Of a DNA stretch of 64,000 nucleotides, positions 1,745 through 49,167 are shown piece by piece (position 1 is the stretch's first letter; every line of letters begins with the position of its first letter). The stretch comes from Nicotiana tabacum (taxonomy: Eukaryota > Streptophyta > Magnoliopsida > Solanales > Solanaceae): contig NC_134096.1 in NCBI RefSeq assembly GCF_000715075.1, positions 66,283,026 through 66,347,025 on the forward strand, read 5' to 3'. Below the pieces are notes generated by a model. That model did not search any database, was not told the origin of the DNA, and saw only the letters and a list, made by a program, of their open reading frames with translations. The position numbers were made by a program, and so were the translations under genes.

Positions 1745-3380
1745 TTATCATGATGAACCAATAATTGTGACATGTAATGCGACAACGCAACATAAGGATA
1801 TTGACTCGAAAGAAATAGAAGAAGAGGATATAATACCTGAGAAAATTGTTTGAGAAGTTGAAGATTTTGAGAACAAGCCTAAGTCCAACCTGGACGAAAC
1901 TGAGATAGTCAACTTGGGAGATTTTGAAACAGTCAAAGAAAGTCGCATAAGCATCCACCTGTCACCATCAGAGAAAGAAGAATACACCCGTTTCCTGAAA
2001 CAATATGAAGAAATTTTCGCATGGTCTTATGATGATATGACTGGTTTGAGCACGTCCATAGTGGCTCATAAACTACCCACCAACCCAATGTGTCCACCAG
2101 TAAAGCAGAAGCTCAGAAAGTTCAAGCCAGATATGAGTCTAAAAATCAAAGAAGAAGTCACCAAGCAGATCAAAGCTAAGGTTCTCAGAGTGGTTGAATA
2201 TCCAACTTAGTTGGCTAACATCGTGCCAGTTCCGAAGAAGGATGGGAAAGTCAGAGTATGCATCGATTATCGGGACCTAAACAAAGAAAGTCCCAAAGAT
2301 GATTTCCCGTTACCCAACATACACATATTGATCGACAACTGCGCCAAGCATGAACTCCAATCCTTTGTGGATTGCTTCGCGGGATATCATCAGATCTGTA
2401 TGGATGAAGAGGATGCCGGAAAGACATCTTGTATTACACTGTGGGGGGTGTACTGCTATAAAATGATGTCGTTTGGTCTGAAGAATGTTGGAGCCACTTA
2501 TATGAGGGCCATGACAACTATTTTCCACGACATGATACACAAGGAGATAGAGGTATATGTGGATGATGTCATCATCAAATCCAAGAAGAGTACAGATCAC
2601 ATAGCAGACTTGAGAAAATTCTTTGATCGGCTTCGGAGGTACAATTTGAAATTGTATCCCACAAAATGTGCCTTTGGGATGCCCGCAGGAAAGTTGTTAG
2701 GATTCATCGTCAGTCGCCGAGGAATTGAGCTAGACCCATCAAAGGTCAAGGCTATCCAGGATTTGTCACCTCCAAAGAACAAGAAAGACATGATGAGTTT
2801 CTTAGGACGTCTTAATTACATCATCTGCTTCATAGCACAATCAACCGTGATCTGTGAGCCAATTTTCAAAATGTTAAAGAAGTATGCCGCAACAAGTTAG
2901 ACTGACGACTACCAGAAAGCTTTTGACAGAATCAAAGAATATTTGTCCACACCGTCAGTCCTGGTCCTACCAGAACCTGGTAGACCACTACTACTCTATT
3001 TCTCCGTATTAGATAGGGATTTCGGGTGTGTCTTGGGACAACACAATGAGACGAGAAAGAAAGAACATGATATATACTATCTGAGTAAGAAGTTCATACC
3101 TTACGAAGCACGGTATTCTTTGCTGGAACGCACCTGCTGTGCTTTGACCTGGATAGCCCAGAAATTGAAGCACTACTTTTGTGCCTATACCATATATCTC
3201 ATATCAAGGATGGATCCTCTGAAGTACATCTTCCAGAAATCCATGCTTACAGGGAAGCTGGCAAAATGGAAGATATTGTTGAGTGAATTCGACATCGTTT
3301 ATGAGACTCAGAAGGTGGTTAAGGGACAAGCATTAGTGGATCATCTTGCAAAAATCCTGATGAAGAAGTATCATTCGTAG
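1745..3380 (+). pseudogene. Element A: reverse transcriptase and first RNase H
   Basis: This is the Ty3/gypsy reverse transcriptase that would copy the element RNA into DNA. The N-terminal approach contains EIVNLGD and the palm begins around KQKLRKFKPD. A TAG at 2208-2210 sits where a Trp is expected just before LANIVPVPKKDGKVR. The catalytic YVDD box is intact at 2556-2567. The thumb and connection follow (GFIVSRRGIELDPSK), then a second TAG at about 2898-2900, again at a Trp position. The first RNase H runs to a stop at 3378-3380 (SKKFIPYEARYSLLE). A TGA also lies upstream at 1849-1851. Everything is in one frame, so only point stops break it, which implies moderate age. Confidence 0.85.
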
Positions 3381-3843
3381 GAGAAGATATCGCCGAAGCC
3401 TACAACGGATGGAGAATATTTTCGATGGAACCGCAAACTTCAAAAGAGTGGGTATTGGAGCCGTTTTGGTGTCAGAAACATGTCAACATTATCTGGTATC
3501 CGCTAAACTCAGATTTTCGTGCACCGATAATATGGCAGAATATGAGGCTTGCATATTGGGGCTCAATTTGGTCGTTGACATGAATATCCAAGAATTACTG
3601 GTAATTGGTGATTTAGATCTTCTAGTATATCAGGTGCAGGGAGAATGGGCTACAAAGAATACCAAGATATTACCATATACATATCATGTGCAAAAGATGA
3701 TGGAGAGGTTCACGAAGATAGAGTTTAGACATGTCCCAAGAATCCAGAATGAGTTCGCGGACGCATTAGCCACTTTGTCCTCCATGATACAACATCTGGA
3801 CAAGAATTTCATCGACCCCATTCCGGTAAGGATTCATAATTAA
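3381..3843 (+). pseudogene. Element A: second, archaeal-type RNase H (aRH)
   Basis: A second RNase H follows the first one, which is the hallmark of the Tat/Ogre lineage of plant Ty3/gypsy elements. The readable frame is 3409-3843; the junction with the first RNase H needs a frameshift near 3381-3420. Likely metal-binding acids are all visible: Asp in FDGTANF, Glu in MAEYEACI, Asp in VIGDLDLL and Asp in EFADALATLSSM. A Leu follows the third Asp region where a Ser is usual, which probably does not affect catalysis. It ends at a TAA after PVRIHN. The enzyme would degrade RNA in RNA-DNA hybrids during reverse transcription. Confidence 0.82.
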
Positions 3844-5133
3844 CCAGCTTACTGCGCTCATATTGAAGAAGAAGAAGACGGGAATCCATAGTTCCATGAG
3901 ATCAAGGAGTACTTGGCAAAAGGAGAGTACCCAGAGCATGCAAATCATACTCAAAATGCACGCTCCGAAGATTGTCCAACCATTTATTCCAAAGTGGAGG
4001 AATTCTGTATATAAGGACTCCAGACCTAGGGTTATTACGGTGTGTTGATGCCAAGGAAGATTCCAAACTGCTCGAAGAGATACACTCTGGAACTTGCGGA
4101 CCACGCATGAATGGTTTCGTTTTAGCCAAGAAGATATTGAGGGCAGGTTATTTTTGGATGACTATGGAAACAGACTGTATCAGGTATGTCCAGAAATGTC
4201 ATCAGTTCCAAATACATGCAGATATGATACGGGTGTCGCCAAATGAAGTCAATGCAACGAGTGCACCTTGGCCTTTTGCCTCTTGAGGAATGGACGTCAT
4301 TGGACCAATCGAGTTCGCTGCTTCAAACGGGCACAGGTTCATTTTAGTGGCCATAGAATATTTCACAAAATTGGTCGAAGTTATATCCTACAAAGCTGTA
4401 ACCAAGAAAGTCGTCGCAGATTTTGTCAGAGATCGTATTGTTTGCCGATTCGGAGTTCCAGAGTCCATCATCACCGTCAATGCCGCCAATCTAAACAGTG
4501 ACCTAATGAAATCTATGTGTGAGACCTTCAAAATCAAGCACAAGAATTCCACAACATACAGGCCTCAAATGAATGGAGCCGTGGAGGCCGCAAACAAAAA
4601 TATCAAGAAAATACTGAGGAAGATGGTAGACAACCACAAGCAATGGCACGAGAAGTTACCATTTGCCTTATTGGGGTACCGTACCACAGTACGCATATCA
4701 ACCGGGAAAACTCCCTATTTGCTAGTCTACGGTACCAAAGTTGTCATTCCTGCCGAGGTTCAAATTACTTCTTTAAGAATTATACAAGAAGCTGAACTCT
4801 GTGATGCAGAATGGATAAGAAGACACTATGAACAATTAGCTTTCATTGACAGGAAAAGAATGAGTGCAGTGTGTCATGGTCAACTCTATCAGAATAGAAT
4901 GTCCAAAGCTTTCAACAAAAGGGTCAAACCTAGACAGTTTGCACTAGGGTAACTAGTGCTGAAGCGGATCTTCACGCGTCAAGATGAAGCCAAAGGGAAA
5001 TTTTCGCCCAATTAGCAAGGGCCCTACATGGTTCATAGAGTACTAAAAGGGGGAGCACTCATACTCGCAGAAATGGATGGAGAGGTTTGGCCAAAGCCTA
5101 TCAATTCAGAAGAAGTCAAAAGATATTATGTTT
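3844..5133 (+). pseudogene. Element A: integrase with damaged zinc-binding and catalytic residues
   Basis: This integrase would insert the cDNA into the host genome. The first segment up to about 4030 is in another frame and degraded. From 3972 the frame holds the HHCC-like domain, but a His position reads Arg (CGPRMNG) and one Cys of the second pair is Phe (KCHQFQ). A TGA at 4284-4286 precedes MDVIGPIEF, which has the first catalytic Asp. The second catalytic Asp is lost: the motif at about 4465-4490 reads IITVNAANLN, with Val at the Asp position. The Glu-bearing helix near AVEAANKNIKK remains. A readable C-terminus runs to about 5133 (KRYYV), interrupted by stops at 4950 and about 5012. It is clearly inactive. 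Confidence 0.83.
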
Positions 5134-5773
5134 AGAATGTTCGCATTTCTTCATCTAATGTAATTGAACTACGCTCGACCTGATTCCCGTTTAAAAGGGG
5201 ATAAGTAGGTAGCCCTGTGGGTTCTATCACAATTCAATAAAATTTTATTTCCCCCACAACCAGAAACTAGGGCAGAATTTTGAGGAGGACCCTCAAAATT
5301 CCGGAGCAAGTCCAGCCAACGTCATCATATGCAGAACGGTCAGAGAATCGCCTAAGTAAACTGGGGCAGAATTTTGAGGACGACCTTCATAATTCTAAGG
5401 AAGTCGCAATGTCTCTAAAGTGTCACAGTCATTGGTTCATATAATTTATCCAATATTGCATACTAATGTATTTTAAATAACTACATTTATCATATGCACG
5501 CACATTTTCAAAAACTTTATTTTTATGAAACAACCAGATGCTACCCGTGGTAACTCAAGCAGGACTTCGATAAAGAGCAAAGCAAAGCAGGCAGGCGGAG
5601 GCACGAACCAACCTTCCCCCGTAAAACTCACGATTGTCCTTTGGATGCAGGAACAAGAAATATTCTCAAATTCGGGCACACCTCAGAATCACTATCTTCA
5701 TAACGACAAAACTGCCAAGCGCAAACACATTTCAGCTATGAAATACTCTGCTACTACTTATTATCTGTTCATT
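5134..5773 (+). other. Element A 3' non-coding segment, first part
   Basis: No coding region is convincing here. The segment contains a recurrent hairpin motif at 5166-5214 and two similar blocks built on 'gggcagaattttgagga' (about 5270-5300 and 5363-5390). An open frame at 5525-5779 has no recognisable domain and I do not call it a gene. Confidence 0.5.
5166..5214 (+). other. Dispersed hairpin motif E1 (GAACTACG...GTAGG)
   Basis: Outer arms CTAC (5169-5172) and GTAG (5205-5208) enclose an invariant CTGATT and an inner stem CCC/GGG. It is one of six copies in this window in elements A and K. Confidence 0.55.
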
Positions 5774-6520
5774 GCATGAGACTAAGCATTATCTCCATCT
5801 TGCATGAAGCTAAGCCCTGCCTCCTTAATTGCATAAGGCTAAGCACTGCCTTCCCCTGCATGAGACTAAGCATTGTCTCTATTTTTTATGAGGCTAAGCC
5901 CTGCCTCCTCAATTGCATAAGGTTAAGCACTTCCTTCCCGTGCATGAGACTAAGCATTGTATCTATTTTGCATGAGGCTAAGCTATGCCTCCTCAATTGC
6001 ATAAGGCTAAGCACTACCTTCCCCTGCATGAGACTAAGCATTGTCTCTATTTTGCATAAAGCTAAACCCTGCCTCCTCAATTACATAAGGCTAAGCACTG
6101 CCTTCCCCTGCATGAGACTAAGCATTGTCTCCACCTTTGCATGAGGTTAAGCCCTGTCTCCTCAATTGCATAAAGCTAAGCACTGCCTTCTCTGCATGAG
6201 ACTAAGGATTGTCTCCATTTTGCATGAGGCTAAGCCCTGCCTCCAATCTTGCACAAGGCTAAGCACTGCCTTTCCTTAGACGAGACTAAGCATTTTCTCC
6301 CATCCTGCATGAGGCTAAGCCATGCCTCCTCAATTGCATGAGACTAATCATCGTCTCCCACTTCGCATGAGGCTAAGCATTGCCTCCTTAGTCGTATAAG
6401 GCTAAGCTCTGCCTTTCCTTGCGTAACTCCAAATGCTATGCTACTTGAAATCTAGCACTATTCTCCACCTCGGGGATAAGCTCTATCCCCGATCTTACAC
6501 AAGACTAAGCTTTGTCTTGT
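5774..6520 (+). repeat. 84-bp tandem array built of ~28-bp hairpin units with TAAGC loops
   Basis: An 84-bp higher-order repeat starts at 5774, 5858, 5942, 6026, 6110 and 6194, then becomes less regular. Each 84-bp unit holds three ~28-bp sub-units, and each sub-unit is a small hairpin with an 8-nt loop TAAGCNNT. Stems are GAGAC/GTCTC, GAGGC/GCCTC and AAGGC/GCCTT in turn. At the right edge two variants keep the TAAGC core with quite different 7-bp stems: CGGGGAT/ATCCCCG (6471-6491) and ACAAGAC/GTCTTGT (6499-6520, loop TAAGCTTT). Because 84 is divisible by three the array stays open in one frame, but that frame is not a gene. Confidence 0.92.
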
Positions 6521-7218
6521 TTCGCTTTGAATAACCAAACGTCATGTCTTTGCATCTCATTGGCTGAAATACTGCCATTTTTGTCCGAGGGGTCATAGTC
6601 CGAAGGCATCATCCTCATAGCCGGAAGACACAATGCCATGGCCTGAGGATCTCTCAATATCGTACATCATTATTCAAAGGCGTCATAGTTCAGAGGCACC
6701 ATTTTCATGGCCTGAGAACACCATCCCCAACGTCCATAGATAGCTTTCATGGTCCAAAAGGAATTTGCATCATGTTTAAATTCTCGCAATAATCCATATA
6801 TACTTGCATGTATTGTGTTTTAAGTTTTGCAGGTAATCCAGGAAGTAACCGTTCTCCTAACGGGAGGAATCTTTGCTCCGGTTTCCGTTCAACGTTCACA
6901 TCCTGCAATTATTTCAAACGTAACCAACCACCGTCCGTTACCCATTTCCATCTGATTACTGTTCAAATATCCATAACCATTCCAAGGTACATCTATTCAC
7001 AATTCCGATATCGTCCTATCCAGAAGAGCTTGTCCTTTCCTATAACAACACCATCGGCTTATTCCACCGTTGGATCCAGAATTACACACGGTCTGATTCC
7101 CGTAAAACCAAGGAAATGTAGGCAACTCAGAAACCATAGTTCGACCTATATTTTTCCAAATCACCCCATTCGGTCGGTCATCATTTCTTAACCCGACAAC
7201 TCTTTCATCATTCCCGGG
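6521..7218 (+). other. Element A 3' non-coding segment, second part
   Basis: Roughly 6575-6770 contains degenerate ~22-bp repeats around 'cATaGtCcGAaGgC' and 'cCATGGCCTGAGgA'. A sixth hairpin motif copy lies at 7081-7126. I see no protein domain here; the open frame 6808-7191 lacks recognisable similarity. Confidence 0.5.
7081..7126 (+). other. Dispersed hairpin motif E2
   Basis: Outer arms TACA (7083-7086) and TGTA (7117-7120), an invariant CTGATT, and an inner stem TTCC/GGAA (7097-7100 with 7112-7115), followed by the conserved GGCAAC. Confidence 0.5.
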
Positions 7219-7233
7219 GTAAAGAGGGGCAGC
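7219..7233 (+). promoter_or_regulatory. Polypurine tract of element A
   Basis: The purine-rich run GTAAAGAGGGGCAGC directly precedes the LTR start TGTTGATACCC. In LTR retrotransposons this tract primes plus-strand DNA synthesis, and its position fixes the 3' LTR boundary. Confidence 0.75.
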
Positions 7234-8633
7234 TGTTGATACCCAATTTTTCTCTCATATTTTAAATATACATATTTACTTTCAAAATAGTACATATGCA
7301 TCATCATTAAGTTTATAAGCATATACACGTATTTTTCATAATTTTTTATAATTTTTAAAGGCTTTAAATCGATTTATTTCTGTATTTTTATACCTAGTAA
7401 TTATCCTTCATATTATTTTTACGATGATTTAATCATCTAAACTTATAATTACACCAACATGATGTTTTAAATATTTTCAGTGCATTTTCTAATTACATTT
7501 GCATTTCTAGGGCTAATTATATATTTTTGCAATAATAGCCAATATTCATGTATAATTACATTATTTATGTGAAAATAACTCTTTATGTTTTTATAATGTT
7601 AAGTAATTATTTTTAATCATTTTAGTGCAATAAATAATATTTTGTTATTTATTAATTACTTTTATAAATTATTATTTTTATTAAATACCCAATATTTAAA
7701 AACTAACCTAAAATACTACCTATTTTTTGACCAATTACTGGCCCAAAATCTAATACCCTAGCCCAAATAACCCCCAGCCCAAATCAATTAACCTAACCCC
7801 ACAACCCGGTCGCAACTCATTTTAACCACCCGACCTATTTCCCCTTTAATCATGGTCGTTGATCTCTAAGATCAACGGCCCACATTAAATCTTCCCTTTT
7901 AATTACTACCCTCATCCCTAACCCTAATAATTTCCCACCGCCCGCCGCCCTCATATCCCACCTCCCTTCTCCCTCCTAAGAACCCTAGCCGATGCCCCCC
8001 TAAAATCTCTCCTAATCCCACGCGATATGGGATTCTATGGCTACCCTTTGCCATATACAGCCTCTCTTTGGTACTGGTTCTTCTTCTATACTGCTTGCCT
8101 AAGCATGGAAAGCAGATCTCATAAGGATCGAACCAAAATCGGTTCAAATCCTTGACTTTTCCGATATTCTATCTATATTTATAATCTTGCTCTTTGTAAG
8201 TACGAATATTTGTATATCTCTTATGGATTCTTACTTACCCTAAAATTAGGGTTTTCAGATCTCTTTTAATCGAACCAAAATTGGTTCGATTCTCTGATTT
8301 TAAGTATTATTATGTCCATATTTGTCCTATATTCTACTGTGGCCTATTTTTATTATATTTTTGTCAATATTTGTCTTACCCTAAAATTAGGGTTTCCAAA
8401 TTTTCTTAAATCAGACCAAAATTAGTTTGACCCTCTGAGTTTTAGTGCTATTTGGGTCTATATTCATCCTATGTAATTATTTTTGTGTATATTCTGGTAA
8501 TATTTATTTTCCTAAAAACTAGGGTTGCTTGACTTCTCCTAAATTGATTCTGAATCAATTTCGCATGTTATTCTTTCCTTTTCTTTTGAGGTTGATTGAT
8601 TGTTTTCCTTGTCTGTGCGTTTAATTTTACCAC

Positions 8634-8640
8634 TATATAA
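8634..8640 (+). promoter_or_regulatory. TATA box in element A LTR
   Basis: TATATAA followed by ACCCATACCC, in an otherwise AT-rich region turning pyrimidine-rich, looks like a Pol II core promoter. Transcription would begin about 30 bp downstream, near 8665-8672, defining the U3/R border. This is inferred from motif and position. Confidence 0.5.
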
Positions 8641-8751
8641 ACCCATACCCTTTCCCGCTTTTGGAAGAGATGAAAGTCACTAAAAAAACTCTCACTAAAA
8701 ATTGAGGTTTCTACTTTGTATTTGTTTACTATTCTGTTCTGTTTGGCTCTT

Positions 8752-9740
8752 GGCCGGCTGAAAGCCAACGCCACCAGATTTCTACTTTTCTGACCATCTC
8801 TTGGGTGTGAGCACTGCCCTGGATTCTTAAAACCCTTGGGAACTTGGCACATTTGAGACTCTAGGCCCTTACTGTTGTTCTTTTCTTGTTTATTGAACAA
8901 TCACTGGATAGTTTCTAAACCCTCGCAATGTTTATTCTCTTATGTTAGCATGTCTTTTGAAACTGCACGACTTAATGTATTCCCTTGAGTCTCTTTATGT
9001 GTGACTCTGCCTATAATTGCTAGCCTAATAATGTGTTTGCACCTAACTTAGTTAATTTAGACAGAATGAAGCATGTTTAGTTTGGTGTTGTTGATAATTC
9101 GAATGTTCTGCCTTGATTATATGGTTTAATCCATGTTCTCTGCCTAAATTATGAACTTCTAGTTATTAATTGATGTTATTATCATGCCTTAACTTGTTTA
9201 AGACCTTTACTCTAAGTGTAGTATGCTCCTATGACTATGGTTGCCACTCTATGTGTTCTTGTCATGTCCAATTATGCACCTCTAATAACCTGTTATCCTT
9301 TAAACTATTCCTCCTTGACTGATACCCTTTATGATATCTAATCATGTTTGTATTATACTGTGTAATCCTGAGTTTGGTATAATCTGATCCTTTAAGTTCT
9401 ACACTGGTTGCATTACTTGGTTTTACTAGTCTAATGCCTTGCCTGTTGACGTTGCAATCACAGGCTCTTTGTTTCTTATCATATGACATCATGCCCAATG
9501 TGTTAGTTTGCTTCTTGAGTTCATTATATGATTATCTTATAGTGTTTGAAAATGCTTTTCCAAACCTATTACTATTTTTTATTGATTGTTTCCTGTTATG
9601 AGTCTAATTCTGGGCCGGCTGAAAGCCAAGGCCCCCTCCCCTAAATCTTCTCTATCAATCTCCCTAGTGTGAGCACTGCTCGAGGTGCATTTTGAGACCC
9701 TTGTGAACTCTGACACACTAGGGTATAAGGTTCTTTGGGC
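8752..9740 (+). repeat. Two diverged copies of a ~130-bp block within the element A LTR
   Basis: A block beginning GGCCGGCTGAAAGCCAA occurs at about 8752-8875 and again at about 9614-9730. Both contain GTGTGAGCACTGC, then a 'gaaCtTgGcACA'-like stretch and end in a CTAGG-type segment. The copies are about 860 bp apart, downstream of the predicted transcription start. The element's RNA would carry both. Confidence 0.65.
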
Positions 9741-10100
9741 CACTTTGTCCTAATTGTTCAACTCTGCCCCTCCTTTTTCACCTATTGAATAAACCAATTG
9801 GTTTGTGTAAATGGCTATTGATCAGCTCTGGCTACTGGGTTTTGGCTATTTTGTGTAAATGAATATTGTTTTTCTGGGTTTGATTGGCTATGACTTCTGG
9901 GCTGTGGTGAAACCTGTTGGATATTTAATTGAAGGCCTGGCTGGGCTAGGTATACTTTGGGTCTGTCTTAGGCCCACTATAGTTATTTTGTAACTTTGTA
10001 ATTTATTTCATTCATTGAGCCTGTAATAATGTTTTAATAACAATTGGGGTATTAGTAAAATTTGAAAAATGGGCCTATTATAATGTTTGCTTGAAACGAG

Positions 10101-10570
10101 TAGAAATCCTGCCTATAGGTGTTTAATTTGCTCAAACATGTTCTGCTACCATGTGTTGTTAGATATCCTGCCTATAGGTGTTAATTTGCTCAAACATTTT
10201 CTACTCCTATATATCTCTAGAAATCCTGCCCATAGGGTAATACCACTCTCCTTAATGTGTTAATATTGAACTTTCAAACACGATTTCATTGTTTAACTCT
10301 GCCGCTATTAGAAAGCATGCCTATAGGATCAAACTGGGTAATTCTGAGTATTTTCAATAGTTATCACTGCCAACTACTGCGCAAATTACCTAGAAATCAT
10401 GTTTATAGGTTTAACCACTTGTAATCTATAATTTCAACAATCAGCTCGCAATACCAGATTCCCTAAAATGTATAGTTATTACGAAATCACGTCTATAAAG
10501 GTAGCATCTTGCATCTGAAACTACCTGCATGTTCGAATCCAAGGTCACATAGAAACCATGTCTATAGGGC
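10101..10570 (+). repeat. Degenerate 60-90-bp repeats in the element A LTR
   Basis: The core 'tAGAAATCcTGCcTATAGG' recurs at about 10101, 10160, 10219, 10310, 10390, 10481 and 10550. The first two copies also share the following 'TGTTTAATTTGCTCAAACAT'. Later copies drift to 'AAACCATGTCTATAGG'. There is no coding potential. Confidence 0.75.
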
Positions 10571-11640
10571 CTAATGGCTTTAATTTGCCTCAATTCTGAA
10601 ATTGTCTAACATTTAATGTGAAAATTTGTTCGCGTGTATTTGTTGTCTAAGTGTGGAGGCTAACTTGAGCCCTTAATTGCTTTTACATGAAGTCCAACAT
10701 GTTTTGTATGTTGCCTAGTTTTATCATTTCTAAGCAGCCAAAGCTAAGTCTAGAAACCATCAAAAATAGAGGTCCAAACACCTCTTGGGCCATAGGCATG
10801 GGACGGGTAGTGCACGTATAGGGCACGATTTAGAATCAACTAGTGCGCTTTAGGTAAAAACTTAAAGATAGTAATCGGGTAGTAGGAGATGATAGTCTGT
10901 GCCCGTTGAATAATACGAGTAACACCCAACCTCGAGGGAGTTACGAAGTATTATTTATGTTGCACGGGGTGATCTTTTAGGCTAAAAAACTTAGGACCCC
11001 CCCCCCCTACCCCCTCATCTTGTCTTTAAACCAATTATCTGTGTTTACTCAAGGACTTTCTAATAATGATTTTTTTTTCAAACTTCTTGTTTTTCTCTCA
11101 AACCCGTTAGATGGCGAATCTCTCTTTTAACCCCTTCCTTTAAAAGAGTTGTCACGTGTCAAAACCCAATTTCGAGAGAAAGAGGGGCGCGACACAAGGC
11201 CACGACTATACCTCAAAACACAATGTACAACTCGGATGACATAGGGCTCACCAAAACCTGCTGAATAGAGAGTGACTGCTAACGAGGACCAAAGTTGCCC
11301 GCTGATGAACCACCTGCATCCATTAAAGATGCAGTGCCCCCGGCAAAAGGAACGTTAGTACATATGGAATAGTACTAGTATGTAAAGCTAACTGCCCTCT
11401 TTCAAATAGAATGTCAATGTGAGAAAGGGAGAACCATGGAAACAACAATCAACAATAAATGATATTCAAATACCAAGTTAAAACATAATGATTTCCAAAA
11501 TATGAAGATAACTTTGTGAAGTGATAATCAAAATATGATGATAATATTATTTTTGGTTGGGAGATCTTTAATACTGATATACCACTGTTCAAAATACCAC
11601 CATTCACAATACCAATACCACCGTACTTTTAGCACGGAGT

Positions 11641-19230: not shown

Positions 19231-19725
19231 TCAGAATATATATCTTTTGTCTAAGTTATTCAATAAAAATCTATGGAATATAATCCTTTTCAATAAATAT
19301 ATTTCCGAATATAATTCTCTAGAGTAAATATCTTTCGAATATAATTCTTTCAAGTAAATATCTTTCGAATGTAATTCTTTCAAGTAAATATCTTTAAAAT
19401 ATAATTCTATCAAATAAATACCTTTCGAATATAATTCTTTCAGGTAAATATCTTTCAAATATACTTCTTTCAAGTAAATATCTTTATAATATAATTATTT
19501 CAAATAAATATCTTTCTAACATAATTATTTCGAATAAATATCTTTCAAATATACTTCTCTCAAGTAAATATCTTTATAATATAATTATTTCAAATAAATA
19601 TCTTTCTAATATAATTCTTTCGAATAAATATCTTTCAAATATACTTCTCTCAAGTAAATATCTTATAATATAATTCTTTCAAATAAATATCTTTCTAATA
19701 TAATTCTTTCGAATAAAAGTCACCA
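19231..19725. repeat. 30-bp tandem array in the solo LTR
   Basis: About 16 copies of a 30-bp AT-rich unit built on 'tttCAAGTAAATATCTTTc'. Unit starts such as 19331, 19361, 19391, 19421, 19451 and 19481 show an exact 30-bp period. The minus-strand open frame across it (repeating YLKELYSKDI) is only a by-product of the period being divisible by three. Confidence 0.9.

Positions 19726-19824: not shown

Positions 19825-19883
<59 letters not shown>
19825..19883. repeat. (TA)n microsatellite
   Basis: About 29 uninterrupted TA dinucleotides. The length may vary between copies and may be unreliable in an assembly. Confidence 0.97.
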
Positions 19884-19889: not shown

Positions 19890-20430
19890 CAAATCAATTG
19901 GCATGGCAACACCCTTCGTGAATTTATATCTTCCTCACTGTGAATACATATAATAGTACCAACTAGGTGGAAGAAATTCCAATAACAATAAAAAAAATAA
20001 AGTGAAGGCACACATGAAGCAACAACAACTACAAGTCACACAGAAAACATAGGTACACAATAACATCTCAAGATAAAGGCATGAATGTATACACAACAAA
20101 ATGATATCACAATATAATGTATGTCTCTCGCCTGCACGGAAACACCCTTCGTGCCATGAATAAATGATAACATAAAAATAATTGCACGGCATCACCCTTC
20201 GTGCTTTTACTCTCATCCTCACCTGATAATATAAATGAAATAGTACGGCATCACCATTCCTGCTTTACACTCTCAATAGCACGGCATCACCCTTCGTGCT
20301 TTACACTCTCAAATGGCACGACATCACCTTTCATGCTTTACACTCACAAATGGCACAACATCACCCTTCCAGCTTTAGACTCTCAAATGGCACGACATCA
20401 CCCTTCGTGCTTTACACTCTTCCTTACCAA
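19890..20430. repeat. Hairpin array GCACG...CGTGC in the solo LTR
   Basis: About eight units of the form GCACGGCATCACCCTTCGTG with C after it, spaced about 30-65 bp and followed by 'TTTACACTCTCAAATG'. Arms GCACG and CGTGC can pair around an 11-nt loop. Several units are degraded on one arm (GGCACGACATCACCTTTCATG, GGCACAACATC). Confidence 0.75.
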
Positions 20431-30228: not shown

Positions 30229-30545
30229 ACTGCACGGCATCACCCTTCATGCATTTACTATCAATCTCACCAAATAAATAAATAGAACGGTACAGCATCA
30301 CCCTTCGTGCTTTTACTCTCTTCCTCACAATGTAAATAATTCATGCACGGCATCACCCTTCGTGCTTTATACTCTTACTCACAATATAATTAAATTATGC
30401 ATGGCATCACCCTTCGTGCTTTACGCTCTTCCACACAATATAATTAAATTATGCACGGCATCACCCTTTGTGCTTTACACTCTTCCTCACAATATAATTA
30501 AATTATGCACGGCATCATCCTTCGTGCTTTACACTCTTCCTCACA
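30229..30545. repeat. Hairpin array GCACG...CGTGC in element H
   Basis: Six units 'GCACGGCATCACCCTTCGTG' plus C at about 57-64 bp spacing, separated by 'TTTACACTCTTCCTCACAAT'. Stem arms GCACG/CGTGC surround an 11-nt loop. One unit has GCATG on the left arm, keeping a G-U type pair, and one has CATGC on the right. Confidence 0.8.
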
Positions 30546-31409
30546 ATTCACAAAATAAATAACAACGGATAGAGAGAAGTTTCACAAGAAATCAATATTT
30601 CATCAATGATTACCTTCATAATTTAACATCTCGACCTCGAATCAATATTCACAATCTTATCGACCTTGATGGAACCAGATACAAGTCTCCTAACATTTCA
30701 TCAACAACAATAAGCATGGATAACAAAATTTAAGACTACAATTTGCAAGAAATGGAATTTCACTCGCATGCTATGACTCGACCACAACGTATAGATGCTC
30801 TCACCTCGACTATACGTCTATTCAACAACGAAACACGTAGCAAATACTCACACAATACCTATTCCCTCAAGCCAAAGTTAGACACAACACTTACCTCGCT
30901 CCGAAGGCCACTTAATTCTTAATCATAGCTTTTCCTTTAGAATTCAACTCCAAACCACTCGTATCTATTCAAAAATGACTCAATAATATCAAATATTGCT
31001 AAAGGAATTAATTATATTTCATAAATTAAATTTCACAAATTTTCCACCAAAAAGTCGAAAAATCGACACCGGGCCCGCTTGGTCAAAACGCGAGGTTCGG
31101 ACCAAAATCCTTTTATCCATTCATCCCCGAGCTCGAATATATAATTTGTTTCGGAATCCCACCCCAAATTGAGGTCTAAATCCCCAAATTCCCGAAATCC
31201 CTAATTTCTACCCTAACTCCTAATTCTACCATGAAACTCTAGAATTTTGGTTGAAAATTCAAGAAATGTAATGGGTAATTGAAAGAAAATGGTTTAGAAT
31301 CACTTACCAACAATTTGGGAAAGAAATGACTCTTGAAAAATCGCCTCTCACCGTTTGGTTTTTGAGAAAAATGAGTTTTTGGCTAAAATCCCATTTTTGG
31401 ATTCTGTTA

Positions 31410-37105: not shown

Positions 37106-37350
37106 AGCAGGAGTGATAGGAGTCTGGGCTCCTCCTCCAGCTTGAGATACTGCTGGTGCCATGGGAAATACGCCAGTCTGGGCCACACTCTCTATAAGGC
37201 CCACCAAACGGACCAAAGCGTCCTGAAGTACTGGGTAGTAATGAACCCCTCCGGAACCTGAGTTGGTCTGGCAGGAATAGTCTGGGCTGGAACCTCCTCG
37301 TCAAGCAGTAGAGGGGAACCAACCGCACCTCCAGTTTTGTTTTTTGCCAT
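37106..37350 (-). pseudogene. Element J: gypsy gag N-terminal fragment
   Basis: On the minus strand an ATG at 37350 opens MAKNKTGGAVGSPLLLDEEVPAQ and continues to GFITTQYF; another frame carries VRLVGLIESVAQTG, APAVSQAGGGAQTPITPAPDQ, a proline/glutamine-rich pattern like the gag N-terminus of element M (VVSTQAAPATSQAGGG). The piece ends at the junction with the LTR of element I. The first ~45 bases of it also occur in the 3' LTR of element K at 47619-47665, so it overlaps the block shared by the two K LTRs. Confidence 0.6.
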
Positions 37351-38864
37351 TAACTCGCCGGAAACACACACAACATCGGCACTGTTAAGGAAAGGCATAC
37401 AAAAATCTAATTGTTCGGGCTAATTAGTTTTAGAAAGAAGAAAATCAAAGAGAGAGAGAAACACCTTTGCTTCTTGCTTCTGATTTCGGATTTGGTTCCA
37501 AAAACATCAAGTTCGACTGAGTTCGAGGTGTCGTTCGTGGTCCGGTTCGCGTTTCTGTTCGAAATTTGATCGTCGTGTCGAGATCCAGTCTATTGTAACT
37601 TGTGCTTTGTTCGAATTTGAAGTGCAATCACATTCGAGGCAAAATTCTTAAGTACAAAAGGTCAATTTCTTTCTTATATTTTGGATATTGAATTGTTGTT
37701 TTTAGTATTTGTCTTTACTCTGTTTCGATACATGTCAAACTAGTTCTTTGTTGCTCTACTTTGTAGAATGTTTTAATATCTTATCAACTCTGTTTTGTTT
37801 GTGAATATTTGTGTTAGTATTGTGTTCATAAGAAGATATATTGGGTAATAACTCGGTTGTTGTTAGTGAAAGCTTTGGTCAATTCTTTTCACTGTTAGTT
37901 TTGACCAAGTTTATGGTGAGAGGGCATGATATTTTCTCTATTGTTCGGTTGTGTTTTCCTTGGGTTTAATTTAAGAGATGTTGAATTAGTATTTCGTAGG
38001 CCAATTTCCTAAAGCTTGCTAAGTTCTATTGTTTCTTTAATTACTCTAATCATGTTAATCTTGTCTCGGCGGATCCTTTACCGCTATAATTTGTTTGCCT
38101 GGTTAAGTTGATTTAGTAGATGATATTAATCAGGTTTCGTTGATTTCTTGTCAATGTTAAAAATAGTGAAGAAGGAGGAAGACAACAATATGTTTAAGCA
38201 AAAATGGACCATGCTCATATGTAAAGTGAGTTTGGGGTTTGAGATTTGGGCCAAGTAATAGATCATGCTTATTAACATCGTAGCTTGCTTTAGGCGCAAT
38301 TAATAATAATCATCGTGACTATGGGTACGATTCCCGTGGCGTGCTCATGACACATAAATCCCAACTCAAGTGCGCGTTTCACGCGACTTGACCATAACTT
38401 CAAATAATAATTAAAATAAACATGTTGTGAGTTGAGGGTGCATTTCACGTGAACAATATGTGCAAAAAGAACGAGTGTGCGACATCGCGACTTGTTAAAA
38501 TGAGTTCTATAATTAATTAAAAGCAGTTAGAAAGTAAAAAATACACAATAGGTTTTGAACATGTAATAAATCAGATAATTAGGCCAATTATTAATTGTAA
38601 AGCGACCGTGCTAAAATCACGGAATCCGGGAGTGCCTCACACCTTCTCCAGGATTAACAGAATTCCTTACTCGATCTTCTGATTTTCGCAAACTTTAAAA
38701 CAGAGTCAAATTTTCTCGATTTGGGATTTAAAATAAACCAGTGACTTGGGACACCATAAATTATTCCAAGTGGCGACTCTGATTAATTAAATAATTCTAT
38801 TTTGATTAATGTCACTTTAATTGGAAAGATTTACCTATCTCCTCGGGAAAAAGTAGGTGTAATA
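37306..38864 (+). mobile_element. Element K (Ogre-like): 5' LTR, partial
   Basis: About 1.56 kb from AGTAGAGGGGAACC to GTGTAATA is nearly the same as 47619-49167 and sits directly before a primer-binding site, so it is the R/U5-side of a 5' LTR. The U3 side (corresponding to 46952-47618) is absent; a gypsy gag fragment takes its place. The last bases ATA should be ACA. The pair differs by many substitutions and by a ~20-bp indel near 38400-38450. Confidence 0.8.
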
Positions 38865-44659: not shown

Positions 44660-45420
44660 TAGTATAAAAAATCTTAGCCTGATAGATTTTCTCCAAATAA
44701 AAATCTTAGTCTGATAAAAAATCTTAGCCTGATAGATTTTCTCCCAATAAAAATCTTAGTCTGATGAATTTTTCTCCTAAGATAGAAAACCTAGTCTCAT
44801 GAATTTTCTCCTAGGATAGAAATCTTAGTCTGATGAATCTTTGTCCTAAGATAACAAAAAAAAGGACCTAGTCTGATGAACTTTCTCCTAGGATCAAAAT
44901 CTTAGTCTGATAAATCTTTCTCCTAAAGATAGAAAACCTAGTCTGGTGAATTTTCTCCTAGGATAAACGTCTTAGTCTGATGAATCTTTATCCTAAGATA
45001 ATAAAAAAAGACCTAGTCTGATGAACTTTTTCCTAGGATAGAAATCTTAGTCTGATAAATCTTTCTCCTAAGATAACAAAAAACAAAAAGGACCTAGTCT
45101 GATGAATTTTCTCCTGGGATAAACGTCTTAGTCTGATGAATCTTTCTCCTAAGATAACAAAAAAGAGGACCTAGTCTGATGAACTTTCTCCTAGGATCGA
45201 AATCTTAGTGTGATGAATATTTCTCCTAAGATAGAAGACCTAGTCTGATGAACTTTCTCCTAGGATCAAAATCTTAGTCTAATGAATCTTTCTCTTAAGA
45301 TACCATAAAAAAAAGACCTAGTCTGATGAATTTTCTCCTAGGATACAAAGTCTTAGTCTGATGAATTTTTCTCCTAAGATTAAAACCTAGTCTGATGAAT
45401 TTTCTCCTAGGATAATTATT
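44660..45420 (+). repeat. Array of alternating CTTAG/CTAAG and CCTAG/CTAGG hairpins
   Basis: After three degenerate leading units, about 18 units run from 44749 to 45415. Each is an inverted repeat with a ~17-nt loop TCTGATGAATYTTTCTC. Odd units use stem ATCTTAG/CTAAGAT, even units ACCTAG/CTAGGAT. The two types alternate strictly, and the right arm matches its own left arm in nearly every unit (single-base exceptions: CTGGG near 45113 and TTAAG near 45295). Spacers are A-rich (GATAACAAAAAAAAGG). There is no coding potential. Confidence 0.92.
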
Positions 45421-45589: not shown

Positions 45590-45870
45590 AAATCTAGGAG
45601 ACACACTTCCTAGTTTGGATTTTTTAGATTTTATTTCTTTAGGAGACGCACTTCCTAATTTTAGGTTAAAGGTTTCACTCGTAGGAGACACACTTCCTTG
45701 TCTGGGTCTTTCAGGATATACTTTAGGAGATGCACTTCCTAGTTTGGTTCATTCAAGTTTCACTCGTAGGAGACACACTTCCTAATTTGATTCATTCAAG
45801 TTTCACTCCTAGGAGACGCACTTCCTAGTTTGGGTTATTCAAGCTTCATCCCTAGGAGACGCATATCCTA
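45590..45870 (+). repeat. Array of TAGGA...TCCTA hairpins
   Basis: Seven units of the form TAGGA-GACRCACT-TCCTA at about 45597, 45641, 45685, 45724, 45767, 45810 and 45852 (~43-bp spacing). The outermost base pair varies: C/G, T/A and T/G-type combinations occur. Linkers resemble 'GTTTGGTTCATTCAAGTTTCACTC' in part. Confidence 0.85.
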
Positions 45871-46009
45871 GTCGAGTCTTTAATTTTACTCTCATCATTG
45901 CATCATTCATCAATAGCATAAGTGATTTATAGTTCTGCTAACAACTCACAAATCTTCCTAGTGCAAACTGGGGTAGAAAAGTTTCTTTTGTTTTGTTTGT
46001 TTTGCTGTA

Positions 46010-46590
46010 GTACCAGGAGCCCGCCTGACGAATAGGGTCAACTTTCAATTTCAAGTTCAAGTTAGAGAGGCATCAGGAGCCCGCCTGAAGAATAGGGTCA
46101 ACTTTCAATTTCAAAAGTTAGAGAGGCATCAGGAGCCCGCCTGAAGAACATGGTCAACTTTCAATTTTTAAGTTTAAGTTAGACAGCCATCAGGAGCCCG
46201 CCTGAAGAACAGGGTCAACTTTTAATTTTCAAGTTCAAGTTAGAGAAGCATCAGGAGCCTGCCTGAACAACAGGGTCAATTTTCAGTTTACAAGTTCAAG
46301 TTAGAGAGGCATCAGGAGCCCGCCTGAAGAACAGGGTCAACTTTCAGTTTTCAAGTTCAAGTCAGAGACAGCAGGATCCCGCCTGAAGAATAGGGGCAAT
46401 CTCTAGTTTTTCAATTCAAATCAGAAGTAGCGCGAGCCGCCTGAAGAACAAGGTTTGCAATCTCAAGTCTACCGCAAGTTCAAGTTTATTTCAAGTGCAA
46501 GCAGCAGGGTGCCCGCTTGAAGAATAGGGTCAACTTCCATTTTTCTTCAAATTCAAGTCAGTAGGATGCCCACCTGAAGAATGGGGTAAA
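46010..46590 (+). repeat. ~60-bp tandem array with TCAGG-AGCCCG-CCTGA hairpins
   Basis: About ten units of ~60 bp, each beginning CATCAGGAGCCCGCCTGAAG and followed by AACAGGGTCAACTTTCAATT and a 'TTCAAGTTAGAGAGG' spacer. The TCAGG/CCTGA arms pair around AGCCCG. Right-hand units degenerate (AGCAGGATCCCGCCTG, GTAGGATGCCCACCTG). A single related unit sits at about 45510. Confidence 0.88.
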
Positions 46591-46951: not shown

Positions 46952-49167
46952 CGTAAGCACGTAATTTTTGACCCGCTCAACTTTTAAAAGTAGTATTTCA
47001 AAAATATTTGTTTATTTTTATTTTTAATAGGATTTCAGTCTACTTTTAGTTTTAATTTTAAAACATAAGTTTGAAAAAATAAAAATAGTTTTATAACGTT
47101 TTTTTTAGCTTATTAGTAATTTATAATATTTATAACATTTAAAAAAACACCCAAAGTATTTTCATTTTAATATATAGTTCACTTTAATAATGTATTCTTA
47201 TTAACTAAGATTAATTAGTATATTTTGTTTTTTTTTTCAACGAGAAAGAATTGAATTTGGGCCAATTGGGAGCTCATTTTCGGATTTTAGTGGCTAGCAA
47301 GACAAAGGCCCATTCTTCCCAATCTCTTTTAGCCCAAACCCTTTTCTCACCCATCAAACCCCTACCTTAATCATAGTCATTGATCTACTTTTATCTAATG
47401 GTCCATGTAAACCTTTACATCCATATAAAAAATCAAATTAATAAACCTAAGATTCGAATTCTAAGGAACCGAGCGGCAGCCTACTCCCAAAAGATCCCAT
47501 TCCCTTCTATATCCCTATCTTCCTCAAAAAAGACGGAAAAATTCCAAAAGCTTCTGCCACCACCCTCTCATTCTCTCAACCCAACAACACTCAGCCACAC
47601 ATACACACGCAGATACAGTAGAGGGGAACCAGCCGCACCTCCAGTTTTTTTTTCGCCGTTAACTCGCTGGAAACACACACAACATTGGCACTGTTAAGGA
47701 AAGGCATACAAAAATCTGATTGTTCGGGCTAATTAGTTTTATAAAGAAGAAAATCAAAGAGAAAAAAAACACCTTTGCTTCTTGCTTCTGATTTCGGATT
47801 CTGTTCCAAAAATATGAAGTTCGACTGAGTTCGAGGTGTCGTTCGTGGTCCGGTTCGCATTTCTGTTCGAAACTTGATCATCGTGTCGAGATCCGGTCCA
47901 TAGTAACCTGTGCTTTGTTCGAATTTGAAGTGCAATCACATTCGAGGCAAAATTCTTAAATACAAAAGGTCAATTTCTTTCTTATCTTTTGGATATTGAA
48001 TTGTTGTTTTTAGTATTTGTCTTCACTCTGTTTCGATACATGTCGAACTAGTTCTTTGTTGCTCTACTTTGTAGAATGTTTTAACATCTTATCAACTCTG
48101 TTTTGTTTTGTGAATACTTGCGTTAGTATTGTGTTCATAAGAAGATGTATTGGATAATAACTCGGTTGTTGTTAGTGAAAGCTTTGGTCCATTCTTTTCA
48201 CTATTATTTTTGCCCATATTTATGGTGAGAGGGCATGATATTTTCTCTATTGTTCGGTTGTGTTTTCCTTGGGTTTAATTTAAGAGATGTTAAATTAGTA
48301 TTTGGTAGGCCAATTTCCTAAATTCTGTTAAGTTATATTGTTTCTTTAATTACTCTAATCATGTTAATCTTGTCTCGGTGGATCCTTTACCGCTATAATT
48401 TGTTTGCCTGGTTAAGTTGATTTAGTAGATGTTATTAATCAGGTTTCGTTGATTTCTTGTCAAAGTTAAAAATAGTGACGAAGAATGAAGACAACAATTT
48501 GTTTAAGCAAAAATGGACCATGCTCATATTTAAAGTAAGTTTGGGGTTTGAGATTTGGGCCAAGTAATAGATCATACTTATTAACATCGTAGCTTGCTTT
48601 AGGCGCAATTAATAACAATCATCATGACTATGGGTACGGTTCCCGTGGCATGGTCATGATACGTAAATTCTAACTCAAGTGCGCGTTTCACTCGACTTGA
48701 CCATAACTTCAAATAATAATTTATGAGTCGCGGGTGCATTTCACGTGACGCGATTCACAATATGTGCAAAAACAACGAGTGCGCGACATCGCGACTTGTT
48801 AAAATGAGTTCCATAATTAATTAAAAGCGGTTAGAAAGTAAAAAATACACAATAGGTTTTGAACATATAATAAATCAGATAATTAGGCCAATTATTAATT
48901 GTAAAGCGACCGTGCTAAAACCACGGAATCCGGAAGTGCCTCACACCTTCTCCCAGGTTAACAAAATTCCTTACTCGGTCTTCTGATTTTCGCAGACTTT
49001 AAAACAGAGTCAAATTTCCTCGATTTGGAATTTAAAATAAACCGGTAACTTGGAACACTATAAATTATTCCAAGTGGAGACAATGATTAATTAAATAATC
49101 CAATTTTGATTAATATCACTTTAATTGGAAAAACTCCCCTATCCCCTCGGGAAAAAAAGGTGTGACA
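46952..49167 (+). mobile_element. Element K: 3' LTR (2.2 kb)
   Basis: The LTR starts CGTAAGCACGTAATTTT (TG mutated to CG) after the polypurine tract and ends AGGTGTGACA at 49167. From 47619 on it matches the 5' LTR block 37306-38864. The first ~670 bp has no 5' counterpart in the window. The shared block begins exactly where a gypsy gag-like stretch starts, suggesting the LTR family itself once captured gypsy sequence. Confidence 0.8.

What the first reader, a model, noticed from the sequence alone, without database searches (positions are those of the whole stretch)
5774..6520. Tandem hairpins with one conserved loop and at least five different, co-changing stems
Seen directly: about two dozen ~28-bp units keep the loop TAAGCNNT, while the flanking arms change together: GAGAC/GTCTC, GAGGC/GCCTC, AAGGC/GCCTT, CGGGGAT/ATCCCCG (6471-6491) and ACAAGAC/GTCTTGT (6499-6520). 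Point decay would damage one arm at a time, so matched changes on both arms imply either selection on a fold in the element RNA or a process that rewrites one arm from the other, such as intrastrand template switching during reverse transcription. The units are organised in an 84-bp three-hairpin period.
Basis: partly seen in the sequence, partly recalled or inferred. Interest (0 to 1): 0.88.

Follow-up and report, generated by a model that had tools for sequence, protein, structure and literature searches.

The report
Matched-stem hairpin array in plant retrotransposon
A jumping gene in what is likely a tobacco-relative genome carries, just before its end, a string of tiny hairpins whose loop stays nearly the same while the stems come in at least seven matched versions across its copies, so the folds are likely needed by the element's RNA while it multiplies.

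Summary
The array lies in the 3' UTR of a ~20-kb Tat-type LTR retrotransposon, probably in Nicotiana. In the window it is 23 tandem units of three stem types plus two end hairpins; 14 of the 23 have perfect 5-bp stems, and none of the 9 others is compensated.
In 804 units from 60 of 66 copies examined, arms co-vary strongly: at pair 2, 714 Watson-Crick pairs against 428 +/- 12 after within-copy shuffles. Seven matched stem types recur in two or more copies, one needing transversions (GAGTC/GACTC; 80 of 94 T-bearing units matched). The loop TAA(G/T)CNNT is more conserved than the spacers even when units are picked by stem alone.
Arms are not routinely rewritten: isolated arm changes stay unmatched (3 of 100 matched at pair 1), and a sister hairpin keeps one stem type. 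Best reading: selection kept pairing in the transposing lineage, with decay after insertion. A second LTR element in the window has an analogous array (18 of 18 matched at the differing pair). Against: no wobble (G.U) signature, few type origins, and one-base mismatched stems recur in up to 25 copies, read as decay. Function is inferred; there are no RNA data.

The parts
5774..6414 (+). tandem array of 23 hairpin units (about 27-30 bp apart), stem types GAGAC/GAGGC/AAGGC in an 84-bp three-hairpin period, loop mostly TAAGCNNT
6470..6492 (+). penultimate single-copy hairpin TCGGGGAT-AAGCTCT-ATCCCCGA (8 bp); counterparts in other copies include GGGGC/GCCCC, AGGGC/GCCCT, GGGC/GCCC and mismatched forms
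6499..6520 (+). last hairpin ACAAGAC-TAAGCTTT-GTCTTGT (7 bp), once at or near the array end in the 9 copies with a perfect AAGAC/GTCTT stem; pattern has 3,884+3,971 genome hits with up to 3 mismatches (control 40+41), some of which may be ordinary units
5273..5301 (+). long hairpin CAGAATTTTGAGG-AGGAC-CCTCAAAATTC upstream in the same 3' UTR, recurring in other copies
2211..2900 (+). reverse transcriptase fragment (PF00078)
2901..3380 (+). first RNase H (PF17917/PF17919)
3364..3843 (+). second RNase H (PF13456, taken as Tat-type aRH), between RH and integrase
4287..4952 (+). integrase core (PF00665, E 1.1e-5, below the gathering score)
7221..7233 (+). purine-rich tract AAAGAGGGGCAGC before the 3' LTR
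7234..11194 (+). 3' LTR; the 5' LTR starts at C17:66274098; 7.4% different (K2P 0.078). End read by eye
11195..11199 (+). target-site duplication CAAGG, also directly before the 5' LTR (read by eye from the printed flanks)

Best explanation
The array lies in the 3' UTR of a ~20-kb Tat-type LTR retrotransposon, and its 5-bp stems come in at least seven matched types around one loop because, most likely, selection in the transposing lineage keeps each hairpin folded so that a still unidentified protein would bind the loop in the element RNA. Shown: position between pol and the 3' LTR; co-variation at pairs 1, 2, 4 and 5; recurring matched types; a sharp stem end after pair 5; loop conservation at positions 1-3, 5 and 8 but not 6-7; mostly uncompensated single-arm changes. 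Unequal exchange or strand transfer (inferred) then copies units of each type along the array.
For: Within-copy shuffles of 3' arms over 804 units in 60 copies: pair 1 668 vs 551 +/- 8, pair 2 714 vs 428 +/- 12, pair 4 758 vs 706 +/- 5, pair 5 696 vs 545 +/- 10; pair 3 barely varies (725 vs 725). Within-copy unit comparisons: double changes that keep Watson-Crick pairing 5,531 in register, 167-918 slid (not independent events). The same trend holds in the sample anchored on the PPT/LTR junction, not on the hairpin: 14 of 20 loci gave 179 units, pair 2 157 vs 97 +/- 5. Seven matched types in 2 or more copies; 76 copy-by-type combinations with 3 or more perfect units against 1 mismatched. Transversion type GAGTC/GACTC: 80 of 94 T-bearing units matched in the first 100 of 6,471 hits. 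Units picked by perfect stem and 8-nt loop length only: loop entropy 0.09-0.49 bit at positions 1-3, 5, 8 and 0.79 at position 4, against 1.2-1.6 at 6-7 and 0.9-2.0 in the flanks (539 units). Local folding: mean pair probability 0.74 on the sense strand vs 0.49 antisense, 206 units; window 0.67 vs 0.27, 14 units. Second array in another LTR element: 18 of 18 matched at the pair that differs.
Against: No G.U-bearing arm pair is common enough to count as a type (at most 7 units), and single-arm changes making G.U (40) do not outnumber those making A.C (79; 58 of these at one G>A site), so the usual RNA wobble signature is missing. Mismatched stems do recur across copies: GAGAC/ATCTC 30 units in 25 copies, AAGAC/GTCTC 20 in 19, more copies than the types GGGAC or GAGTC; I read them as repeated decay because they almost never reach 3 units in one copy, but that is inference. 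Types are copied, so unit counts are not independent; about seven type origins stand behind the statistics. With one unit per copy pair 4 is weak (57.1 vs 54.2 +/- 2.5 of 60). No expression, probing or binding data. The antisense strand folds to a lower total energy (-256 vs -202 kcal/mol). Loop conservation could partly reflect shared ancestry.
Confidence: 0.5

Rival explanations
1. Hairpin-driven amplification: well-paired units make reverse transcriptase pause and jump more often, so perfect hairpins multiply along the array regardless of any benefit to the element. Pairing is selected at the level of the repeat unit.
For: Mismatched units almost never reach 3 copies in one array (1 combination against 76 perfect ones). 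Tat 3' UTR arrays have been attributed to illegitimate recombination or abnormal strand transfer between co-packaged element copies (PMC7004042 Discussion, citing Macas 2009). Unit spacing varies while loop length stays mostly at 8, or 8-10 for the AAGGC hairpin.
Against: It does not explain position-specific loop conservation or the conserved single-copy end hairpin.
Confidence: 0.22
2. Founder types without function: a few matched hairpins arose early and were merely copied; matching is history, not constraint.
For: In the window only three tandem types occur; single-arm changes are mostly uncompensated in the copies, and some mismatched stems recur in up to 25 copies.
Against: Seven matched types recur, each one base pair from another, with shared loop, while mismatched forms rarely multiplied within arrays; a second, different element shows the same design.
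Confidence: 0.18
3. Arm rewriting by intrastrand template switching (in reverse transcription or DNA replication) copies one arm onto the other and makes the matched changes.
For: Template switching in DNA replication is proposed to create and maintain RNA hairpins (PMC8794818 abstract). The transversion type and the 8-bp window end hairpin, which differs from its counterparts by several bases on both arms, fit a multi-base event.
Against: Isolated arm changes remain unmatched: 3 of 100 matched; 2 co-changed of 290 in the TACC hairpin; 5 matched and 5 unmatched double changes against 223 single ones. Stems do not spread beyond pair 5.
Confidence: 0.08
4. DNA-level dyad sites: the arms are half-sites of a dimeric DNA-binding protein.
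For: Perfect dyads with a mostly fixed 8-bp spacing.
Against: Half-sites should be conserved and the spacer free; here the arms vary and the spacer (loop) is conserved.
Confidence: 0.02

Closest known systems
Hypervariable tandem-repeat 3' UTRs of Tat/Ogre LTR retrotransposons (Macas 2009, known here only through PMC7004042 and PMC6317226)
   Same: Tandem repeats of varying monomer between pol and the 3' LTR of a Tat element with very long LTRs.
   Different: I saw no hairpin, conserved loop or co-varying stem described in what I read (Discussion of PMC7004042, passages of the others); the word hairpin has 0 occurrences in the main texts of PMC7004042, PMC6317226, PMC9659126 and PMC10508981. 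Macas 2009 itself was not seen.
Template-switch-maintained RNA hairpins (PMC8794818; abstract, start of the introduction and outline seen)
   Same: Matched changes on both arms of a stem.
   Different: Here most single-arm changes persist unmatched and the matched states are few, discrete and shared; no sign of frequent rewriting.
Retroviral constitutive transport elements and dispersed packaging-signal hairpins (recalled, not tested)
   Same: Repeated stem-loops with conserved loop bases and free but paired stems in a genomic RNA, near its 3' end for the transport elements.
   Different: Far more copies (about two dozen), 5-bp stems, 8-nt loop, plant retrotransposon; no binding partner known.

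Membership tests
Tat lineage (Ty3/gypsy), Ogre/Retand group | second RNase H (aRH) between RH and integrase | tested here: met
   PF13456 at 3364-3843 between RT_RNaseH (2901-3380) and rve (4287-4952); criterion from PMC6317226 passages
Tat lineage (Ty3/gypsy), Ogre/Retand group | very long element with long LTRs and target-site duplication | tested here: met
   LTR 7234-11194 (3,961 bp), partner LTR from C17:66274098, about 20.1 kb in all, 5-bp duplication CAAGG read by eye
Tat lineage (Ty3/gypsy), Ogre/Retand group | tandem repeats in the 3' UTR | tested here: met
Tat lineage (Ty3/gypsy), Ogre/Retand group | placement in an RT/INT phylogeny; PBS type; extra ORF | not tested
   no tree built; PBS and extra ORF not examined
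Ongoing template-switch arm rewriting | single-arm changes are frequently matched on the other arm | tested here: not met
   3 of 100; 2 of 290; 5 matched doubles against 223 single
Functional RNA hairpin (co-variation criterion) | excess of pair-preserving double changes over register-slid and within-copy shuffled controls | tested here: met
Functional RNA hairpin (co-variation criterion) | G.U intermediates favoured over A.C | tested here: inconclusive
   G.U-making 40, A.C-making 79 of which 58 at one site; 135 ambiguous units dropped
Known Rfam families | match with E up to 1 in 4950-7300 | tested here: not met
   0 matches against 4,227 families
Transport/packaging element | protein binding, export or packaging activity | not testable with these tools
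   needs experiments

The most novel reading that the evidence does not exclude
Tat-type plant retrotransposons carry a multi-copy RNA recognition array in the 3' UTR: about two dozen hairpins present one loop (UAAGCNNU) to an element or host protein for packaging or export. The stems are diversified into several mutually mismatched types so that neighbouring hairpins do not pair with each other, and a different LTR element has evolved the same design with another loop.
Probability: 0.28. Interest if true: 0.82.

Novelty: new variant of a known kind. Interest (0 to 1): 0.62.

Why it matters
The 3' UTR tandem repeats of Tat elements are known as hypervariable seeds of satellite DNA. Here they carry the co-variation signature of a maintained fold, in a family with thousands of genomic copies, which makes a function testable. 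Because changes in inserted copies are mostly uncompensated while the types stay matched, the genome separates mutation from constraint, a natural experiment on how stems evolve. The reading also explains why the repeats keep one loop while the rest changes.

Tried and rejected
Rejected: frequent arm rewriting; dyad DNA-binding sites; known RNA family. Wobble test inconclusive. Other arrays in the window were read for the same feature: in 30231-30547 and 20238-20420 (CATCACCC loop) I saw no matched co-change among 11 units, and 19259-19717 folds poorly. Viral-contig search for the exact hairpin: 0 hits. Paper searches listed no paper that I recognised, from titles and abstract starts, as describing co-varying hairpins in Tat 3' UTRs; only the library's licences are covered.

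Weak points: 45 of the 65 sampled loci were chosen by an exact GAGAC hairpin, so that type is over-represented; the 65 lie on contig C1 (the 66th copy is the window). Only 20 of the 100 listed PPT sites were fetched, of 7,714 hits. 116 of 920 loop matches were dropped before the shuffles (neither arm near a type), and 262 of 920 before (135 ambiguous, 127 far). Two of the 14 perfect arm pairs (TAAAA/TTTTA, AAATG/CATTT) are probably chance matches. The pattern lost its end N and gave no partner letter. One search's 3 of 100 and one search's tallies were counted by eye. The TACC tally (65 loci without the window) required one arm near AAGGC/GCCTT, which would miss a type changed at two pairs, without that requirement, found 9-nt loops only with AAGGC among the seven types. 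The double changes (10 against 4.2 expected) show a small excess that I did not follow.

Full report
What was checked. The region 5774-6520 was read and parsed. It holds 23 tandem hairpin units in an 84-bp three-hairpin period, then two single-copy hairpins with 7-8 bp stems. Of the 23, 14 have five Watson-Crick pairs; the 9 others carry changes not restored by a Watson-Crick partner (one has two G.U pairs). Inside the window, then, the tandem stems are three fixed types.

Where it lies. Upstream, in separate reading frames, are RT (2211-2900), RNase H (2901-3380), a second RNase H of type PF13456 (3364-3843) and integrase (4287-4952). A 3' LTR starts at 7234 after a purine-rich tract; its partner lies upstream of the window. 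The LTRs differ by 7.4% (K2P 0.078; 3,926 aligned positions), and a 5-bp duplication CAAGG flanks the element (read by eye). A second RNase H between RH and integrase marks the Ogre and Retand groups of Tat elements (PMC6317226 passages). The best-scoring proteins are from Nicotiana tomentosiformis and N. sylvestris, and the assembly has 4.0 Gb in 700 contigs, so the genome is likely a Nicotiana, perhaps tobacco.

Family sample. The hairpin pattern has 38,449 hits with up to 2 mismatches (control 28). I fetched 5-kb regions around all 45 clusters among the 100 listed places, and 1.3-kb pieces upstream of 20 of the 100 listed PPT/LTR junction sites (7,714 hits, control 0), the latter chosen without regard to hairpins. 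With the window this makes 66 copies; 61 gave 920 loop matches, of which 804 in 60 copies have at least one arm within one base of a known arm.

Co-variation. Shuffling 3' arms within each copy lowers Watson-Crick pairs from 668 to 551, 714 to 428, 758 to 706 and 696 to 545 at pairs 1, 2, 4 and 5; pair 3 is unchanged at 725. Comparing units within copies, 5,531 double changes keep pairing in register, against 167-918 in five slid registers. One unit per copy gives the same picture at pairs 1, 2 and 5 (50.9 vs 34.9, 54.4 vs 29.6, 51.9 vs 41.1 of 60) and a weak one at pair 4. The PPT-anchored sample agrees (14 of 20 loci, 179 units: 152 vs 132, 157 vs 97, 162 vs 138, 139 vs 121 at pairs 1, 2, 4, 5). 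Fourteen perfect arm pairs occur, two of them probably chance matches; seven occur in two or more copies: GAGAC 56, GAGGT 33, GAGGC 20, AAGGC 20, AAGAC 9, GGGAC 5, GAGTC 2. Each is one base pair from another, A-T for G-C except GAGTC. GAGTC/GACTC needs transversions on both arms; genome-wide the pattern GAGYC..GNCTC has 6,471 hits (control 2), and in the first 100 the T-bearing units are T-A 80, T-C 10, T-T 3, T-G 1.

Mismatched stems also recur: GAGAC/ATCTC 30 units in 25 copies, AAGAC/GTCTC 20 in 19, AAGGC/ACCTT and AAGGC/GCCTC 11 in 8 each. They are one base from a matched type and, with one exception (L058, AAGGC/GCCTC, 3 units), no mismatched pair reaches 3 units in a copy, against 76 copy-by-type combinations for perfect ones. 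I read them as repeated decay at mutable sites; that is inference.

Not rewriting. If arms were routinely copied onto each other, any arm change should be matched. At pair 1, 1,131 units (control 18) carry A or G on the 5' arm; in the first 100 only 3 have the matching partner (by eye). The TACC-loop hairpin of the sister arrays has one stem type: 217 of 290 perfect, 2 co-changed, 71 imperfect. Relative to the seven types, 658 assignable units show 223 single-arm changes, 5 matched and 5 unmatched double changes, with 4.2 doubles expected. Stems stop at pair 5: pair 6 has 89 Watson-Crick of 920, expected 76. Changes in the copies are thus mostly uncompensated, with a hot spot (G>A at pair 1 of the 3' arm, 58 of the 223); that it reflects methylated cytosine contexts is my inference.

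Loop. Units picked by a perfect stem around any 8 bases still show TAA(G/T)CNNT: entropy 0.09, 0.13, 0.27, 0.79, 0.49, 1.61, 1.22, 0.21 bit along the loop, against 0.93-1.99 in the flanks (539 units, 61 copies). The conservation is position-specific, as for a recognised loop. The local fold is more probable on the sense strand: 0.74 vs 0.49 (206 perfect units from 25 sampled copies less those with under 3), window 0.67 vs 0.27 (14 units). The sense spacers are pyrimidine-rich, so composition may contribute; in total energy the antisense strand is lower, with z -2.78 sense and -2.27 antisense, 20 shuffles each.

End hairpins. The last hairpin ACAAGAC-TAAGCYTT-GTCTTGT has 7,855 hits with up to 3 mismatches (control 81; the 100 listed are exact); hits with mismatches may include ordinary units. 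The one before it varies between copies as AGGGC/GCCCT (L036, L041), GGGGC/GCCCC (L019), GGGC/GCCC (L073, L075) and TCGGGGAT/ATCCCCGA (window), with mismatched versions in others, for example L064, L029, L034. These occur once per array, so this variation is not array copying.

A possible intermediate. L044 and L045 hold units AAGGC/GACTT (G.A mismatch), and L044 also AAGTC/GACTT, re-matched. This is one case only. Seven copies carry AAGTC/GCCTT, not matched.

A second system. A different LTR element in the window (LTR matches 37306-38860 and 47616-49163, 92.4%) has, upstream of its 3' LTR, 18 units with loop TCTGATGAA... that alternate CTTAG/CTAAG and CCTAG/CTAGG: at the differing pair 18 of 18 are matched, though three units have a mismatch at another of the five pairs (a copied dimer, so the Fisher value 4e-5 is not a count of events). 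The 17-nt-loop form has 11,724 genome hits (control 0); in the first 100, by eye: T-A 89, C-A 5, T-G 3, C-G 2, G-A 1, so of 7 units with a 5' C only 2 are matched, again unmatched isolated changes. The 16-nt-loop search did not complete.

Interpretation. Types stay matched, isolated changes mostly do not become matched, and the loop is conserved. I read this as selection on the fold during the element's active life, followed by neutral decay. The missing wobble signature, the recurring mismatched stems and the small number of type origins keep confidence moderate. Unit-level drive through hairpin-promoted jumping is the main rival. Function as an export or packaging element is by analogy (recalled), untested.

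Noticed in passing
44753-45413: Second hairpin array in another LTR element: loop TCTGATGAA.. with two alternating stems, CTTAG/CTAAG and CCTAG/CTAGG, 18 of 18 matched at the differing pair.
   Followed up: partly
45594-45872: Third array, CTAGGA-GACGCACT-TCCTAG hairpins with one TTAGGA/TCCTAA co-changed unit and several mismatched ones.
   Followed up: no
46014-46399: Fourth array, 61-bp period with a short CAGG-AGCCCG-CCTG hairpin, downstream in the same element.
   Followed up: no
5273-5301: Conserved 11-bp hairpin GAATTTTGAGG-AGGAC-CCTCAAAATTC in the same 3' UTR; 46 matches in 65 fetched loci, 28 identical; two with the matched change GAGA/TCTC and four with GAGA unmatched.
   Followed up: partly
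20238-20420 and 30231-30547: Tandem units with a CATCACCC hairpin core (GCACG..CGTGC) in two places; no matched co-change seen in 11 units.
   Followed up: no
L044:2634-2740: Units AAGGC/GACTT and AAGTC/GACTT in one array, a candidate mismatch intermediate and its re-matched form.
   Followed up: no
L009-L075, 3' of the arrays: Further repeated hairpin GGC-TGAAATATC-GCC; 218 loop matches in 52 of 65 loci, 63 with a 4-bp TGGC/GCCA stem.
   Followed up: partly
19825-19883: Perfect (TA)29.5 microsatellite.
   Followed up: no
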